Part shown: one piece after another, positions 26,217 to 34,978 of the stretch
Numbering within the stretch: the stretch's first letter is position 1
Layout of the letters: the number at the start of each line of letters is the position of its first letter
Assembly: GCA_030640805.1 (NCBI GenBank)
Contig: DAOWIS010000043.1
Span: forward strand, 1 to 38,412
Direction of reading: 5' to 3'
From: a bacterium
GTDB taxonomy: Bacteria > Patescibacteriota > Minisyncoccia > Minisyncoccales > DAOWIS01
DNA: 38,412 nt
The notes under the pieces: model-generated
Databases searched by the model: none
What the model saw: only the letters and a program-made list of their open reading frames with translations
Told to the model about the DNA's origin: nothing
Position numbers and translations under genes: made by a program

Positions 26217-26290
26217 TGCCGGGTCGTCTAATGGTAGGACGATAGACTCTGGATCTGTTAATCTTGGTTCGAATCCAAGCCCGGCAGCCA
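26217..26290 (+). tRNA. tRNA-Gln(CTG)
   Basis: Acceptor TGCCGGG/CCCGGCA, anticodon arm ATAGA-CTCTGGA-TCTGT, T arm CTTGG-TTCGAAT-CCAAG, encoded CCA. Confidence 0.92.
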
Positions 26291-27883
26291 CCTTGCACGA
26301 ATAGAGGCGATAGCCTCTATTTTTGTTTTATTCATTGGCATTTTGCTTGGTTCTAACCTTAGATATTCGTTTTCTAAGGCAGGATAGCCATTTCCTATAC
26401 GAACAAACCACTCATTTGCTTCAATAAAGAGCCTTTTGTCTTTAATTATCGGCGTTTTACCCAATGTCATTAGTATTTCCTTTTTTAGTTCTAACCCACC
26501 CATTAAGAACGCCTTGCGGGCGTATGTAGCAAAGTTAAAGGTTCGTTCATTTAGATCTAAGCATCGCTCAGCTCTGGCTTCAGTTTCTCTTAATTTTCCC
26601 TTAAGTTGATTGATTTTACTTATAAGTAATTTCTTCTCTTTGAGGAATTGTTCGTCATCAATTAGCAAACGGTATCTCATTTTTGTAAGTTCGTCTAATT
26701 CTTTTTGGGTTTCAACTAATGTCTTATGTTGCATTTCATAAACATTAGTTCTGTCTTCAATCTCGGTATCATTTTTTTTGTTTAAACCCTCTAAAGCCCA
26801 GTGTAAAAATTCTGGCAAAATTGTATATTTCTCTATTTCTTTTTCAATTTGTAATTCTAAGTCATTATTCTTGATAACTTTTCTTTGGGAGCAGTTAACG
26901 CTTTTCTTTCGCCGTGTGCAATGATAATAGGTGTATTCTTTTATCTCTCCCGTGCTTTTAATAAATTTCTTTTTGGTTTCTGCTGTGTAGAGGCAACCAC
27001 ATTCTCCGCAACGAATAACTCCTGTAAAGGCAAATTCGTGCTTTTGTGGTCTTGGTCTTCCTTTTCTGCCAAGAAGCATTTGCACTCGGTCATATTCTTC
27101 AAGAGTAATCATTGGTTCGTGCTTGCCTTCATATTGCGTGCCATAGTATTCAATAATACCCGCATAGAAAATACTCCTAAAAATCTTATAGATACTACTT
27201 CTGGAAAGAGGATTACCACCATAACCTTTTTTCTTAAATGTTCTTGTTCTAAATCCCCATTCGTTATTAGCAATATCTAAGATCTTTGGTGGGGTGTAGT
27301 TGCCTGTCAGTATTAAGTCCCACATTTTGCGTATAAGATTAAATCGCTCAGGATCTTTTATGATTGTTTTCTCGGCTTTGTCGTTTAGATAACCAAGTGG
27401 AGCAAGATTAGGTTTCCATCCTTTTTGGAGTTTGCTTTCTGTTCCTCTTTTTACATTTTTTCTCAAATCCAGAATATACTGATTTGCCATTCCGCTTTCT
27501 ACATTAAATAACAACACATTATCGTCGGGAAGATATTGCCTATCTATAGTTTGAATTGATTTAAGTGTTCCTTGTTGCAACAACCAGCTTATCTTACCGC
27601 TATCAATGGGATTTCGGGATAGTCGGTTTATTTGCCAGCATAAAATTCCATCAGCTTCGCCATTTTCAATTCGTTGGATTATTTCCTCAAAGAGGGGACG
27701 GTTATTCGGTTTTTTAGCTGACTTTGCTTCAGTGTAGATTTTCTTAATATCTAAATTCAAATCACTGGCAAGTTGTTTAATCCGATTGACTTGGTCATCA
27801 ATAGATTGAACTTGTCGGTCTTCGCTTTCCGATGATTTTCTGGCATAAAGGAAGTATCTAATTTTGGTTGCATCCTGTCTCAT
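26258..27883 (-). CDS. large serine recombinase (resolvase N-terminus, recombinase domain, Zn ribbon)
   Basis: YARKSSESEDRQVQSIDDQ, GILCWQINRLSRNPIDSGKI, FTGVIRCGECGCLYTAE; C-terminus lies antisense to tRNA-Gln. Confidence 0.95.
   Translation of the reverse strand: MRQDATKIRYFLYARKSSESEDRQVQSIDDQVNRIKQLASDLNLDIKKIYTEAKSAKKPNNRPLFEEIIQRIENGEADGILCWQINRLSRNPIDSGKISWLLQQGTLKSIQTIDRQYLPDDNVLLFNVESGMANQYILDLRKNVKRGTESKLQKGWKPNLAPLGYLNDKAEKTIIKDPERFNLIRKMWDLILTGNYTPPKILDIANNEWGFRTRTFKKKGYGGNPLSRSSIYKIFRSIFYAGIIEYYGTQYEGKHEPMITLEEYDRVQMLLGRKGRPRPQKHEFAFTGVIRCGECGCLYTAETKKKFIKSTGEIKEYTYYHCTRRKKSVNCSQRKVIKNNDLELQIEKEIEKYTILPEFLHWALEGLNKKNDTEIEDRTNVYEMQHKTLVETQKELDELTKMRYRLLIDDEQFLKEKKLLISKINQLKGKLRETEARAERCLDLNERTFNFATYARKAFLMGGLELKKEILMTLGKTPIIKDKRLFIEANEWFVRIGNGYPALENEYLRLEPSKMPMNKTKIEAIASIRARWLPGLDSNQD
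26300..26324 (+). terminator. tRNA-Gln terminator embedded in the recombinase 3' end
   Basis: AATAGAGGC-GAT-AGCCTCTATTTTT. Confidence 0.65.
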
Positions 27884-28059
27884 AACTCAAAGGGACGGTC
27901 TTGTTGCCCAATTCACTTGCTCCGAAGAGTAGCCTCATTGGCAGACCGCCCCTTTAAGGCAACGAGGCATAAAAAACTCTTCGGATTAAGCTGTGATATG
28001 GGCAACACCTTTATTATAAGGATTACCTGCATAGCAAGCAAGTTGATAACTTATTTAGA

Positions 28060-29259
28060 TTACAAATCATACTTTTCAAATTTTTCTAAAGCTGATTGTA
28101 TATCGCTTATAATATTTAGGGTTGGCATATCCTTAAGTATACTTGCAGATTCTTTAATTTTTTTAGAGAGACGCATCCAGCTTTTATTTGACCAATTTTT
28201 CTCAATTTTATTTCGTATTTTCCGAGCACCATAATGACTTATAAGCATAGAAAGTCCGAAGTTTATCAGTATTTTATTTAGAGAATGAGCTTTTTTCTTT
28301 TGGTCTGGATTTAGGGCTTTTATCATAGCATCAAAAATTTCTTCTGGGGGCCTTTCAAGTTTCAAGGCAAGCTGGCTCACGGGTGTATTTATTATTCCTT
28401 CCCAATTTTTCAGTAATGCTCTTTGGCATAACTCTTTATTAAATATCTTTTCAAAAGTTATACCCGTAATCTTTTCACCTAATACTTTTGAGAGAAAAGC
28501 ATTAAGGCTTTGTTGTTTATTAAATCTTACTTCAAATCGTAGGATTTCTTGTTGTGTTTTACTATCCATCCTTTTTAATAACTCTTTTTCCTGTTTCAAT
28601 TTGTCTTTATCTAAAGCTCTTGCCTTGGTTGTGGCTATATCTTTTAGTTTATCGTAAAAGATGATATTTACAGACGAAGCGTAGAAATAAAGGCTCTGTC
28701 CCTCGTTCCCATAATGTCTTATATTTATATCCTTCCTTTTGCCTAAATCTGCTTTATAAAGCCCAGAAATGGCGTCTTGAGCCGTTAATGGGTAGGGAAG
28801 CGGTATGTTCTTCGCAAAATGGGCTTTTACAACGATAGCATGGCGTAAATTCTCCTCTGAAGTTTCTATACCCATTAATACAAGTTGTTGGTTTAAAAAT
28901 CTTACAGTTTTTCCGAAATCTTCTTCTCCCAACTCTTGTATACTGTTTAGAAATAGCAGTTTTGGTATAGAGAATTCAATATGCAATTTATAAATTGGCT
29001 TATTCTCTTCAAATCTTTGGTAAGCCGTCAAGTGTGGCTTATATATACCCTTTTGTTTATCTTGTAGGGTTGGATTTTGTTGATACTTAATAAATCTATG
29101 ACGTCCATAATGAAAATTAAAAGGTTGTATATCTTCTTTTATAATTAAAGCAGGGGTAAAGAAATTAGGTTCGGTAATCCTGAATGCAGGGTATTTTAGT
29201 TTTATAGCTACTGTATCAAGCATAAAATCTTGACTTTTTGCTTTATTTGGAGTATTCAT
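28060..29259 (-). CDS. phage/plasmid replication initiation-like protein (gpII/RstA-like)
   Basis: MLDTVAIKL..., YKPHLTAYQR...LHIEFSIPKLLF, EILRFEVRFNKQQSL, ITFEKIFNKELCQRALLKNWEGI. Confidence 0.55.
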   Translation of the reverse strand: MNTPNKAKSQDFMLDTVAIKLKYPAFRITEPNFFTPALIIKEDIQPFNFHYGRHRFIKYQQNPTLQDKQKGIYKPHLTAYQRFEENKPIYKLHIEFSIPKLLFLNSIQELGEEDFGKTVRFLNQQLVLMGIETSEENLRHAIVVKAHFAKNIPLPYPLTAQDAISGLYKADLGKRKDINIRHYGNEGQSLYFYASSVNIIFYDKLKDIATTKARALDKDKLKQEKELLKRMDSKTQQEILRFEVRFNKQQSLNAFLSKVLGEKITGITFEKIFNKELCQRALLKNWEGIINTPVSQLALKLERPPEEIFDAMIKALNPDQKKKAHSLNKILINFGLSMLISHYGARKIRNKIEKNWSNKSWMRLSKKIKESASILKDMPTLNIISDIQSALEKFEKYDL

Positions 29260-29873: not shown

Positions 29874-31586
29874 CTACTGATATTTATCGTAGATTTCTGG
29901 AGTTTGTTTTTTATATTCTTCTTCTATCCCTAAATCATCATTATTATCTTTATTAGTATCAGCCTTTTCTTTTTTATTTGGTGGCGGTATCAGAGTAATT
30001 TTAATTTTGTAAGAGTTCCCGCTTTTTTCTATTGATGAGTGATAAGGGTAGAAAGGGTCATAATCAAGCGAAAAGTAGTTTTGAAGTGCCCTTGCTAACA
30101 GTTCTTTTTGTTTCTTATATTTATCTCTTGCTTGAGAGTCTTTAATTGTTAGCTCACCATTGACCTGTGCTAATACTTTCATAAATATCCACACTTCACT
30201 TGGATTTGGGCTTTTGCCCCGTCCAACCATTCCCATTTTTTTGTAATCGGCATTGTGCTTAAATTGTTTTACTTGAATAAAAACATTTTCATTATCTTCA
30301 AATTTGATAGTAAAATTTTCCCATTTCGTTCCCAGTGGCAATTTATAAGGAAATTTATTTTTATCTTTTTTGTTGGCTTGAGTAATTACTTTTAATCCGT
30401 CTTGCCAGCCCACAATTTCCATTTTAGAAGTCGCAGATTCTTTATTTTGTTTTCTTTTTTGAGACCCAATTAAAGCAAGGTAATTATCTAAATCTCTTAT
30501 CTTTTCTTTCTCTTTCTTTGGTTTTACATCAAAAATGGTAATGAATTTATATATTTCTCCTAAAAAGGCATTCGTTTTTTGAATCGTCTCCTTCAAATTA
30601 ACACCCTTTCGTTTCATTTCTTCTTCCGCCGAAAAAAGATTAGTAAATGGTTGCCAATCTTTTAATTTGAATTGGGGAATTAAATCTTCATTTATCATTT
30701 CTTTTATATTTTCAGTCAACACAGCGTAAAAGTTATTTAATTTCCTATCTCTTATAATCGGTCTTGCAAAGTATATTTCTACAATATCAATAAGTTTAGC
30801 GTATAACTCAGCCAACTTCTCGCAGTATGATTTTTTAGGTTCAAAAACTTTTACAGCATAATCAATTACTTTTTGAGGATTGACTTTGCAGTTCGCTATC
30901 AGAACCCCCATTTTTATATGCTCTCCTTCTGGATTTTTATTCTTTAAATAATTAAAAAAGATGATATTTTCATTACTTTTACCCAATTTATAATCCTGAA
31001 TTATTCCTTGTGATTTTAAAAAAGATATAGCCTTTTTCCTCAATGCTGTTTCTTTGGGGTCAACTATACTTTTATCTAAAGGAGCAATTGTAATCTCTAC
31101 ATTACAGGTGTTTTTCTGGATGTGTCTTGATGCAATTTTGTTTAATTCAAGTAATACTATTTCTAATATCTCTTGTTCTGTCCATTCTTCATTTATTACC
31201 CCCTTATTTTTAGGTAAATCTTGGAATTTGTCTTGTGCATTCTTTTCTTTATATTTATAGTAGAGGTTATTAAATTTAGGTTGACGAATTGTGAGAGAAT
31301 AAGCTCTTGGTGGACTAAAAAAGTTATTAAAATCAAAAACAGTTGGCTCTAAATTATCAATAGCTTTCCATCCTTTTAATTTGTATAAGAGTTTTTGCTG
31401 TGTTTCTTCACTGGGAAAGCCGTAATCAACATCTTCTCGTTTGATACTGCGAGGTTTAGGTAAGCTCCTAATTGAAAATTCAATCTTCTCTCCTTTTGAA
31501 GCAAGGAGCTCCTCTTTCTTTATTTCCTGTAAAATCCACCAAACATCTTGATTAAATTTTTCCTCTGGGGTCATAGTAATTTTCAT
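29874..31586 (-). CDS. 570-aa hypothetical protein of the mobile element
   Basis: Long ORF in the same-strand block, no family recognised. Confidence 0.8.
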   Translation of the reverse strand: MKITMTPEEKFNQDVWWILQEIKKEELLASKGEKIEFSIRSLPKPRSIKREDVDYGFPSEETQQKLLYKLKGWKAIDNLEPTVFDFNNFFSPPRAYSLTIRQPKFNNLYYKYKEKNAQDKFQDLPKNKGVINEEWTEQEILEIVLLELNKIASRHIQKNTCNVEITIAPLDKSIVDPKETALRKKAISFLKSQGIIQDYKLGKSNENIIFFNYLKNKNPEGEHIKMGVLIANCKVNPQKVIDYAVKVFEPKKSYCEKLAELYAKLIDIVEIYFARPIIRDRKLNNFYAVLTENIKEMINEDLIPQFKLKDWQPFTNLFSAEEEMKRKGVNLKETIQKTNAFLGEIYKFITIFDVKPKKEKEKIRDLDNYLALIGSQKRKQNKESATSKMEIVGWQDGLKVITQANKKDKNKFPYKLPLGTKWENFTIKFEDNENVFIQVKQFKHNADYKKMGMVGRGKSPNPSEVWIFMKVLAQVNGELTIKDSQARDKYKKQKELLARALQNYFSLDYDPFYPYHSSIEKSGNSYKIKITLIPPPNKKEKADTNKDNNDDLGIEEEYKKQTPEIYDKYQ

Positions 31587-31727
31587 TATAATTTACCTTA
31601 TTTTGCCATATTTTAGCTATTTTTTCAATTAAGATGCTTCCAAATTTTGTTAATTTATGCTATTCTTTAATTGTAAAAATTGAATATACAAATTGCCTAA
31701 GTCTTAATAGGATATGGCATAGAAAAT

Positions 31728-31869
31728 CCACTGCGACATAGAGACGGGCTTCCGTTTTGCTATCATGTCGCAGTGGTCCTACCGAAAGGTAGTGGGTAGT
31801 TCCGTGAGGACTATCGGCGAGCGGGAGTCCTTTTCTGTTTATTTCTCGTTCAATAAATCCACTGCGACA
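31728..31869 (+). other. three-copy complementary repeat and structured leader upstream of the methyltransferase
   Basis: CCACTGCGACAT (31728-31739), ATGTCGCAGTGG (31765-31776), CCACTGCGACA (31859-31869); internal hairpin CTACCGAAAGGTAG. Confidence 0.7.
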
Positions 31870-31872
31870 ACT

Positions 31873-33099
31873 ATGAAAAATCAAAATAAACTTTGGAAAA
31901 ATAATAAACTTATTTGTGGTGATAATTTAGAAGAAGTAGCCAAACTTCCTAAAAAGAGTATAGATTTGATCTATATTGACCCACCATTCTTTACCCATAA
32001 ACAATATGAAGTAGTCTGGGGCGACGAAGCAGAAGTTAGGAGTTATAAAGATAGATGGGAAGGAGGAGTAGAGCATTACATTAGTTGGCTAAAACCACGA
32101 GTTCAAGAAATGTATGAACTCTTAAAACCCACTGGTTCTTTTTATATACATTGTGATTGGCACGCTAACGCCCATATAAGAATTATGTTAGATGAGATTT
32201 TCGGTGAGGAGAATTTTAGAAATGAGATAATTTGGTGTTATGAAAGGGCTCATCCTGCCTATAAGATGTTTAAGCGGTTACACGACACCATTTTATTCTA
32301 TTCAAAATCTGATAAGTGGGTTTTCAATATGCCTCGTATGCCTTTTAAAGATGGCTCTTGGCAAAGAAAAAGCTTTAAAAGACCAGATGGGGAGGTATGG
32401 GAGCAAAAGCTAAAAGGAAAGGCTTGCCCTGATTGGTGGATAGATATTCCATCTTTTGCAACCCGAATGTCTGCAAAAGAGCGAACCGGCTATCCTACCC
32501 AAAAACCAGAGGCACTTTTAGAGAGAATAATAAAAGCATCTTCAAATAAAGGTGAGATAGTTTTGGACGCTTTTTGTGGTTGTGGAACAACCGTAGCTGT
32601 AGCTCAACAGTTAGGGAGAAGATGGATAGGGATAGATATATCATCAACAGCAATCAAAATAATACAAAAAAGATTAAAGCAATTTTTGGGAGTAATAGAA
32701 GATATCAACTATGTAGTTATTGGTATGCCGACTACCGTAAAAGAAGTGAGGGAGTTAGAACCATTTGAATTTCAAAATTGGGTAGTAATAGATAAGATGA
32801 GGGCTAAAGCAAGCAGAAAGAAAGTTGGAGATATGGGATTGGACGGATACCTTACAAAGAATTTATATCACGACGAAGCAGGGATACAGGTAAAACAAAG
32901 CGAGAAGGTAGGGCGTAATGTTGTAGATAATTTTGAGACAGCCCTTAAAAGAGCAAAATATAAAAAAGGCTATATTGTTGCCTTTAGTTTTACTAAAGGT
33001 GCTTATGAGGAAGTAGCACGGATTAAAAACAAGGAAGGATTAGAAATAAAACTAATTACAGTTAAGGATTTATTAGAAAAGAGAAAGCCAATAATGTAA
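31873..33099 (+). CDS. DNA (N4/N6) methyltransferase fused to a restriction-endonuclease-like domain
   Basis: IYIDPPFFT, then [15 protein letters not shown] and [27 protein letters not shown]-terminal DMGLDGYL...[21 protein letters not shown]. Confidence 0.85.
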
Positions 33100-33160
33100 G
33101 AGTCAATTTGACTTGATATTTCTACTTTTTAGGTATAATCTTAAATTAAGAAAAATAAAG

Positions 33161-34978
33161 ATGAAAATGGAAGAAAAAATTAAAACCCAAAAAGGCTTTA
33201 TCCAAATTCCTTTATTGATAGCAATTATAGTTTCTGTTGTAGTAACTGCAGGAACTGGTTACGGAGCATTTGAATATCATAAGACTTCCAAGACAATAGG
33301 AGAATCTGAACAATTGGCGAAGGAAGAGAAATACGATGGAGCGATTGAAAAATTAGAACTTGCCCAAAATAGATGGATTACTAAGGATTTGGGGTTAAAA
33401 AGAAATAAGATAAATGAAAAAATAGAAGAAAATAAAAGAAACCTTGAAGATAAATCAAAATTTACTCAAGCTTTTGAAGAATTTGACGAAGCAAATTGGC
33501 AGAAAGCCATAGATTTGTTCTCGGAAATTCCTGAGAACTCTTTTTATTATAAAGACACTCAACTGAAAATTGAGGAAGCTAAAAGGAAAATCGTTGAGGA
33601 AGAGCTTGGAGAGACAAAAATAGCTAAAAAGGAAGCCGAAGAGAAGGCTCAGCAAGAAGCAATTAAAAGAAGTCAAGCCGAAGAAAAAACCAAAGAAGAG
33701 GCGGCGAAAAGAGCTGAGGAAGAAGCTAAAAGAGCCAAAGAAGAGTTAGAAAGGAGAATTGCCGAACAGAAATTATCGGAAAAAGAAGCCGAAGAAAAAA
33801 GAATGAATGCCGACAATGATGGCGATGGCTTAACTTATAGAAGAGAATTAGAATTAGGAACTTCTGATTTGAACTCGGACTCTGATGGCGATGGAATAGT
33901 TGATAGTAAGGACACTCATCCAGCAGGGGGAGGGCGGAATATACCTCAAACATTTGCTTGGAGTTACGGCGGTTATAATTGGACTTGGACAATTTCAATT
34001 CAAGAAGATTGGTATGATTACTATAAAGCAAAGCCGAGAAGTTCTCTTGAAAGCATAGAATATATTACCAGTGATGACCCTTTTATTAAAAAGATAAGCA
34101 AGAGAATTTCAGAGGGTGCTAAGAGTGATGTTGGCGAAGTTTGGTTAGCTGTATCTTTTGTGCAAAATTTACCGTATGTAGACGATGTTTTTACTGGTTA
34201 TGATGAATATCCTAAATATCCTATTGAGACTTTTTTTGAAAAGAATGGAGATTGTGAAGACACCAGTTATTTAGCTGCTTCTATTATTGATGCAATGGGA
34301 TATGGTTCTGTTCTTATTTTGTTGCCAGGACATATGGCAGTGGGTGTCTATATGGATTGCGATACCCCTGGGACATATTATAAGCTTGATGGCAGATGCT
34401 ATTACTATATTGAAACTACGAGCAAAGATTGGGCTGGTGGAGAAATTCCTGATAGATATCGCAATACTCGTGCAACCCTAATAAAAATTCCTTCTGGTAA
34501 GGTTGCTGATATCTATCCTCAATATATAAAACCTTGCTATGTTTCACCAGATTTCTCTGGTTATTATTACGATGGTAGTAATTATTATTCAGACAGCCGA
34601 TGCAATAACTTAGTTTATTGTCTGACCTATAAAGGATATTATACTAAACCCAACGAGGCGAATCTCTATTGGGACAGTAGTTGTAATCAAATAGTGGTAA
34701 AAGGGTGCGTTAAAGCTACGAGTTACCCAGGATATTTTACTAATGGGGTTGATTATTATTCTGATTCTCGGTGTATCCAAAAAGAAAGGATATGTAGACC
34801 ATCCCCAATTTATTCTGGCGAATATTGGGACGGCAACTATCGCTACTGGGATAGTGCTTGCACACAGAAAGTAGTGTCTTGGTGCACCAAGTCTACTTAT
34901 CACCCAGGGTATTTCTTTAGTAGCTTGGATTATGAGTATTATTACGACTATCAATGCACCCAAAAAGCAGATTTGTAA
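33161..34978 (+). CDS. exported transglutaminase-like protein with TSP3-like Ca-binding segment and five Cys-rich repeats
   Basis: Prepilin-like KGFIQIPLLIAIIVSVVV; DNDGDGLTYRRELELGTSDLNSDSDGDGIVDSKD; FFEKNGDCEDTSYLAASIIDAMGYGSVLILLPGHMAVGV; C-terminal CxnYWDSxC repeats. Confidence 0.75.
   Translation: MKMEEKIKTQKGFIQIPLLIAIIVSVVVTAGTGYGAFEYHKTSKTIGESEQLAKEEKYDGAIEKLELAQNRWITKDLGLKRNKINEKIEENKRNLEDKSKFTQAFEEFDEANWQKAIDLFSEIPENSFYYKDTQLKIEEAKRKIVEEELGETKIAKKEAEEKAQQEAIKRSQAEEKTKEEAAKRAEEEAKRAKEELERRIAEQKLSEKEAEEKRMNADNDGDGLTYRRELELGTSDLNSDSDGDGIVDSKDTHPAGGGRNIPQTFAWSYGGYNWTWTISIQEDWYDYYKAKPRSSLESIEYITSDDPFIKKISKRISEGAKSDVGEVWLAVSFVQNLPYVDDVFTGYDEYPKYPIETFFEKNGDCEDTSYLAASIIDAMGYGSVLILLPGHMAVGVYMDCDTPGTYYKLDGRCYYYIETTSKDWAGGEIPDRYRNTRATLIKIPSGKVADIYPQYIKPCYVSPDFSGYYYDGSNYYSDSRCNNLVYCLTYKGYYTKPNEANLYWDSSCNQIVVKGCVKATSYPGYFTNGVDYYSDSRCIQKERICRPSPIYSGEYWDGNYRYWDSACTQKVVSWCTKSTYHPGYFFSSLDYEYYYDYQCTQKADL

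What the first reader, a model, noticed from the sequence alone, without database searches (positions are those of the whole stretch)
27889..28007. Pseudoknot-like structured region between the recombinase and Rep-like genes
Nested stems TGTTGCCCA/TGGGCAACA (27902-27910/27999-28007), TCCGAAGAGT/ACTCTTCGGA (27921-27930/27976-27985) and GCCTCATTGGC/GGCAACGAGGC (27932-27942/27958-27968, 9 of 11) are crossed by AAAGGGACGGTCT/AGACCGCCCCTTT (27889-27901/27943-27955, 12 of 13). This is far more complementarity than a plain intergenic gap and could be a replication origin, att site, or regulatory RNA of the element.
Basis: partly seen in the sequence, partly recalled or inferred. Interest (0 to 1): 0.72.

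Follow-up and report, generated by a model that had tools for sequence, protein, structure and literature searches.

The report
Two-state RNA leader before integrase gene
The folded stretch is the beginning of a messenger RNA, read from the opposite strand, that can fold into either of two competing shapes just before the gene for a mobile element's integrase; about 90 relatives across the Patescibacteria suggest it is an undescribed family of gene-control RNA.

Summary
In detail: all four pairings exist at the stated coordinates. They belong to an RNA read from the MINUS strand. Origin and att-site readings are not supported. Covariance models found about 90 relatives across Patescibacteria; no Rfam family matches. 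The helices carry abundant compensatory changes. The 'pseudoknot' is therefore best read as two alternative folds: State I, the long B-C-D hairpin; State II, A'×A closing a 3'-arm hairpin directly before a U-rich stretch and the gene. Predicted energies are balanced (mean difference 0.4 kcal/mol, 75 RNAs). Best reading: a two-state, attenuator-like leader that gates integrase expression (elsewhere DNA methylases or other genes), probably by early termination, possibly by hiding the start codon. The trigger is unknown, nothing was tested at the bench, and most serine recombinases sampled in the order lack it.

The parts
28013..28018 (-). -10 box TATAAT, exactly 6 nt before the first base of helix B; a weak -35-like TTGCTT lies 17 nt further upstream (28036-28041)
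   Evidence: TATAAT with the same 6-nt spacer in the first four homologs; 64 of 75 homologs have a -10-like hexamer (>=4/6 matches) with a 6-nt spacer. The generic promoter scan did not flag it.
27889..28006 (-). Whole leader RNA, from the inferred transcription start (28006) to the end of helix A
   Evidence: start inferred from promoter spacing, not measured
27999..28006 (-). Helix B, 5' strand (State I); partner 27903-27910
   Evidence: covariation
27976..27985 (-). Helix C, 5' strand (State I); partner 27921-27930
   Evidence: covariation
27969..27975 (-). U-rich bulge (UUUUUAU) between C and D, recurrent in homologs
27958..27968 (-). Helix D, 5' strand (State I); partner 27932-27942. Absent in minimal members
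   Evidence: covariation; minimal members
27943..27955 (-). A' (AAAGGGGCGGUCU): apical loop in State I, 5' strand of helix A in State II
   Evidence: 13/13 pairing with 27889-27901; A'xA found in 50/50 first-set homologs with variants; covariation
27908..27941 (-). 3' arm that folds on itself in State II: E (CCAAU 27937-27941 x AUUGG 27908-27912), F (27931-27933 x 27915-27917), G (CUC-UUCG-GAG, 27920-27929)
   Evidence: 3'-arm self-fold mean z -1.58 vs +0.17 for the 5' arm; E covaries; window fold
27889..27901 (-). A (AGACCGUCCCUUU): 3' strand of helix A, ending in the first Us of the U-rich stretch
26258..27883 (-). Large serine recombinase (541 aa) expressed from this leader
   Evidence: Pfam Resolvase, Recombinase, Zn_ribbon_recom; PHROG integrase 2.2e-69
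26217..26290 (+). tRNA-Gln overlapped by the 3' end of the recombinase gene; probable integration site
   Evidence: recombinases of three homologs likewise run to or over a tRNA; no direct repeat of the tRNA end found in the window

Best explanation
It is a cis-acting 5' leader RNA of the recombinase mRNA that works as a two-state switch. Transcription starts at about 28006 on the minus strand. In State I the 5' arm pairs with the 3' arm (helices B, C, D), leaving A' in the apical loop and A free, and expression of the recombinase can proceed. In State II the 3' arm folds on itself (E/F/G) inside helix A'xA, forming a stable hairpin that ends at a U-rich stretch just before the gene. This most likely stops transcription early, like an attenuator; where the start codon is only a few nt away it could also hide it. 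Shown by comparison: conserved promoter spacing, both folds by covariation, balanced predicted energies, position before the gene. Inferred: that the two folds exclude each other, which one is ON, termination as the output, and an unknown signal (small molecule, protein, antisense RNA, temperature or transcription speed) that sets the balance.
For: State I covariation: 29/29 pairs with double-sided changes, 331 cells vs 98±9, 0/500 shuffles. State II covariation on a sequence-only alignment: 95.3% of cells paired, 101 double-changed cells vs 27±9, 0/500, slid controls far lower. The 3' arm is self-complementary (z -1.58), the 5' arm is not (+0.17). Native arms pair far better than swapped ones: -40.4 vs -18.8, and A'xA -23.2 vs -12.6 kcal/mol. 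Energies are balanced: mean -38.1 vs -38.5 kcal/mol, 47/75 within 5; window -46.3 vs -43.7. Linker to A is 0-2 nt in 65/75 while State I has a median of 32 pairs. The -10 box has a fixed spacer in 64/75 and a U-rich stretch follows the stem. The leader precedes recombinases in 49/50 first-set loci and also methylases and other genes in another class.
Against: No transcript, probing or termination data. The U-stretch is short and interrupted (0.92, 1.00, 0.88, 0.38, 0.15, 0.24, then a second block), and the generic terminator scan finds nothing. Computed folding energies are approximate and a bent pseudoknot is not excluded in members with large internal loops. The State I count is on an alignment fitted to the model. 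Sequences are related, so shuffle counts are not probabilities. No trigger is identified.
Confidence: 0.68

Rival explanations
1. A true pseudoknotted leader. The B-C-D hairpin bends back at its internal loops and its apical loop A' pairs with the tail A, all at once. This single compact fold controls translation of the recombinase, as pseudoknots do in some plasmid rep and phage T4 gene 32 leaders (own knowledge).
For: All four helices covary. Many members have large internal loops or U-rich bulges that could act as hinges. In 26 of 75 members the ATG lies within 9 nt of helix A and few have a Shine-Dalgarno-like motif.
Against: A linker of 0-2 nt against a hairpin of about 22-42 pairs; minimal members with an almost continuous stem (L289); a conserved self-fold of the 3' arm that B/C/D would destroy.
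Confidence: 0.17
2. A small RNA gene with its own promoter and terminator whose product acts in trans (for example with the recombinase, like a guide or bridge RNA) and merely lies before the gene.
For: Own promoter, compact size, terminator-like 3' end; first-set leaders are almost all beside recombinases.
Against: It is always co-directional and usually within about 45 nt of a start codon. In another class 11 of 27 precede methylases, zinc-ribbon/OB-fold, SLH or membrane proteins. Loop sequences are largely shared among members beside different tRNAs.
Confidence: 0.1
3. A DNA element: replication origin or attachment site.
For: It lies in a mobile element beside a recombinase and contains long inverted repeats.
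Against: G-U pairs conserved on one strand only; constant promoter-to-helix spacing; stem sequences vary while pairing is kept. The recombinase 3' end, not its 5' end, meets the tRNA. No Rep family is found in the neighbour. The element also precedes genes that are not recombinases.
Confidence: 0.03

Closest known systems
Transcription attenuators and riboswitch expression platforms (terminator versus antiterminator leaders)
   Same: A 5' leader between promoter and gene; a shared 3' segment pairs in two alternative ways; one fold is a hairpin followed by Us just before the gene.
   Different: No leader peptide: closed short ORFs are fewer than chance (23 of 75 vs 38 expected). No known aptamer or Rfam match. 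The State I fold is one long hairpin carrying the terminator's 5' strand in its apical loop. Found in front of mobile-element genes.
Pseudoknot-controlled leaders (IncB/IncI plasmid repZ/repA, phage T4 gene 32; own knowledge)
   Same: A hairpin loop complementary to the sequence just before the gene.
   Different: A 10-15 bp loop-tail helix, a near-zero linker and a competing 3'-arm fold point to alternatives rather than one pseudoknot; no sequence relation was tested.
LOOT RNA (RF03000)
   Same: A structured RNA on the same mobile element, at the start of the DNA methylase reading frame (31694-31815 +).
   Different: Different sequence and structure; the leader studied here matches neither LOOT nor any other Rfam family.
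IS110-type bridge RNA (own knowledge)
   Same: Noncoding RNA next to a recombinase gene of a mobile element.
   Different: Here the recombinase is a serine integrase, and the RNA also sits before unrelated genes.

Membership tests
Two-state transcription attenuator leader | Two mutually exclusive folds that share a segment, both conserved | tested here: met
   Both folds covary and use the same 3'-arm bases; physical exclusivity itself is inferred
Two-state transcription attenuator leader | One fold is an intrinsic terminator (GC-rich stem plus U-tract) | tested here: inconclusive
   U-rich stretch after the stem but short and interrupted; generic terminator scan negative
Two-state transcription attenuator leader | Termination regulated by a signal | not testable with these tools
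   needs transcription assays
Riboswitch (metabolite-sensing) | Match to a known aptamer family | tested here: not met
   no Rfam match even at E<=10 apart from unrelated chance hits outside the leader
Riboswitch (metabolite-sensing) | Direct ligand binding | not testable with these tools
   no ligand known
Ribosome-mediated attenuator | Conserved short leader ORF | tested here: not met
   23 of 75 leaders have a closed AUG ORF of >=4 codons vs 38.4 expected; positions differ
RNA pseudoknot | Crossing helices formed at the same time | tested here: inconclusive
   linker 0-2 nt in 65/75 and minimal members argue against it; no 3D modelling or probing
Replication origin with Rep initiator | Neighbouring Rep gene | tested here: not met
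   28060-29259 has no Pfam, PADLOC or PHROGs hit
Serine-integrase att site | Lies at the element boundary | tested here: inconclusive
   the boundary more likely lies at the tRNA by the recombinase 3' end; no direct repeat found

The most novel reading that the evidence does not exclude
A phylum-wide, undescribed class of sensor RNA that reads one common signal in Patescibacteria and uses it to switch mobile-element genes (integrase, DNA methylase) and some surface or DNA-handling genes together, i.e. a riboswitch-like control of when elements move.
Probability: 0.25. Interest if true: 0.82.

Novelty: new variant of a known kind. Interest (0 to 1): 0.62.

Why it matters
Little is known about how the small, mostly uncultured Patescibacteria control their mobile elements. 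A leader with two covariation-supported folds in front of integrases and DNA methylases gives a testable handle, with about 90 examples from which to look for its signal. It also shows how crossing complementarities read from one sequence can be two competing folds rather than one pseudoknot.

Tried and rejected
Rfam at a permissive threshold: only chance hits outside the leader. Variable-gap pattern scans of genome contigs and viral contigs were too loose: of 77 loci re-scored, two were real, both Patescibacteria, one of them apparently a contig already found. Phage and plasmid collections: no match. Four viral relatives of the recombinase: no leader. Direct repeat of the tRNA end to map the element: none in the window. 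The first four-sequence alignment mis-registered helix C and gave weak statistics. I considered that A'xA mimics a Shine-Dalgarno helix, and dropped it because the distance to the ATG varies from about 0 to over 80 nt, about 400 in one member. Ribosome-mediated attenuation was rejected: leader ORFs are fewer than expected and not conserved, although the window leader does contain one 11-codon AUG ORF. Literature searches found no description of such a leader, but only open-licence papers are held.

Full report
What was checked. The four pairings are in the sequence at the stated coordinates. The region folds far better than shuffled sequence on both strands (z -4.9 plus, -5.3 minus). The minus strand is very probably the transcribed one. 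The mismatch in the crossing helix and one in the third stem become G-U pairs there, and a TATAAT box lies exactly six bases before the first base of the outer helix in the window and its three nearest homologs. The RNA then runs into the ATG at 27883 of a 541-residue large serine recombinase whose 3' end overlaps tRNA-Gln. The 'Rep-like' label for the other neighbour is not supported by any family library.

Relatives. A DNA search among related genomes found three clear homologs, each directly before a recombinase whose reading frame runs to or over a tRNA. Two of those recombinases are only 23-24% identical to the window's, while their leaders are 78-81% identical: the leader is better conserved than the gene. 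A covariance model built from the four found matches in 11 of 247 genomes of the order, 19 of 384 in a class sample and 23 of 380 in a phylum sample. A second model found 25 of 353 and 15 of 262 genomes in two further classes. In all there are about 90 loci. No Rfam family matches the leader, and the phage and plasmid collections hold no match.

State I. Helices B, C and D (5' arm with 3' arm) covary in 50 sequences. All 29 pairs show a change on both sides in at least one sequence; 331 cells against 98±9 in shuffles, 0/500. That alignment was fitted to the model, so some bias exists. Each homolog's 5' arm pairs with its own 3' arm far better than with those of others (-40.4 vs -18.8 kcal/mol).

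State II. The stretch between A' and A folds on itself in most homologs: in the window type CCAAU/AUUGG, then a short stem, then CUC-UUCG-GAG, with other bases elsewhere. Against dinucleotide shuffles the 3' arm has mean z -1.58 and the 5' arm +0.17. On a sequence-only alignment of 64 RNAs, RNAalifold recovers A'xA enclosing E. Counted there, 95.3% of cells pair and 101 cells show double changes against 27±9, 0/500, with slid controls far lower. A'xA is present in all 50 first-set sequences with many compensatory variants. E/F/G use bases that State I also uses, so the two cannot both form in full.

Why two states rather than one pseudoknot. Helix A starts 0-2 nt after the base of the State I hairpin in 65 of 75 homologs, and that hairpin has a median of 32 pairs. 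Reaching the apical loop from its base would need sharp bends. Minimal members such as L289 lack helix D and have an almost continuous stem. The two states are nearly equal in predicted energy: mean -38.1 vs -38.5 kcal/mol, with 47 of 75 within 5; in the window -46.3 vs -43.7. This fits a switch. Folding energies are approximate, and bent pseudoknots in members with large internal loops are not excluded.

Output. After the GC-rich part of A come Us (0.92, 1.00, 0.88), a short break with a frequent G, then a second U-rich block, dropping to about 0.22. The distance from A to the ATG ranges from about 0 to 86 nt, and about 400 nt in a member with an insert. Only 6 of 75 have a Shine-Dalgarno-like motif. 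A variable distance with a conserved U stretch favours control of transcription; members with the ATG within 9 nt could also use occlusion. The generic terminator scan did not flag the site. Leader ORFs are fewer than expected (23 of 75 vs 38.4), which argues against ribosome-mediated attenuation. This step is inferred, not shown.

What it controls. In the first set 49 of 50 leaders precede a serine recombinase, judged by the N-terminal sequence of the downstream frame, and one precedes a DNA methylase. In the second set (27 loci) 16 precede recombinases, three precede DNA methylases and eight precede other genes, including zinc-ribbon/OB-fold and SLH-domain proteins, one of the latter with a nuclease domain. 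In two genomes one contig carries the leader before a recombinase and, divergently 4-5 kb away, before a methylase. So the signal is unlikely to be the recombinase itself; a common cue is likelier. Conversely, of 30 top PF07508 loci in the order only one gave a significant leader match, plus one weak but recognisable one. In 12 of those 30 my scan did not find the start of the gene or found too little upstream sequence, so the absence is only partly tested.

Verdict. A real, apparently undescribed and widespread leader RNA family, most likely a two-state attenuator of mobile-element genes. Its trigger and output need experiments.

Noticed in passing
window 31694-31815 (+): LOOT RNA (RF03000, 48.4 bits) overlaps the start of the DNA methylase-Mrr reading frame (31765-33099), divergent from the recombinase. 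Two other genomes carry the leader studied here before both a recombinase and a divergent methylase, so LOOT may occupy the equivalent position in this element.
   Followed up: partly
L084, L243, L291, L293, between leader and recombinase: A segment of roughly 300-400 nt with long terminal inverted repeats (AAAGTTCTTTAAAATTTTTGC...) sits between the minimal leader and the recombinase start. No Rfam match in L084 and L243; possibly a second structured RNA or an inserted element.
   Followed up: partly
L252, upstream of its recombinase: A different arrangement: AAAGGAGTTAGAAA and TTTCTAACTCCTTTTTT can pair directly before the start codon, with a long U-tract and a TATAAT inside. Perhaps another kind of recombinase leader.
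   Followed up: no
window 28060-29259, 29874-31586 and 33113-34978: Three long proteins of the element (399, 570 and 621 aa) have no match in Pfam, PADLOC or PHROGs.
   Followed up: partly
window 27935-27970 (-): The window leader contains an 11-codon AUG ORF in the U-bulge/helix D region; such ORFs are not conserved among homologs.
   Followed up: yes
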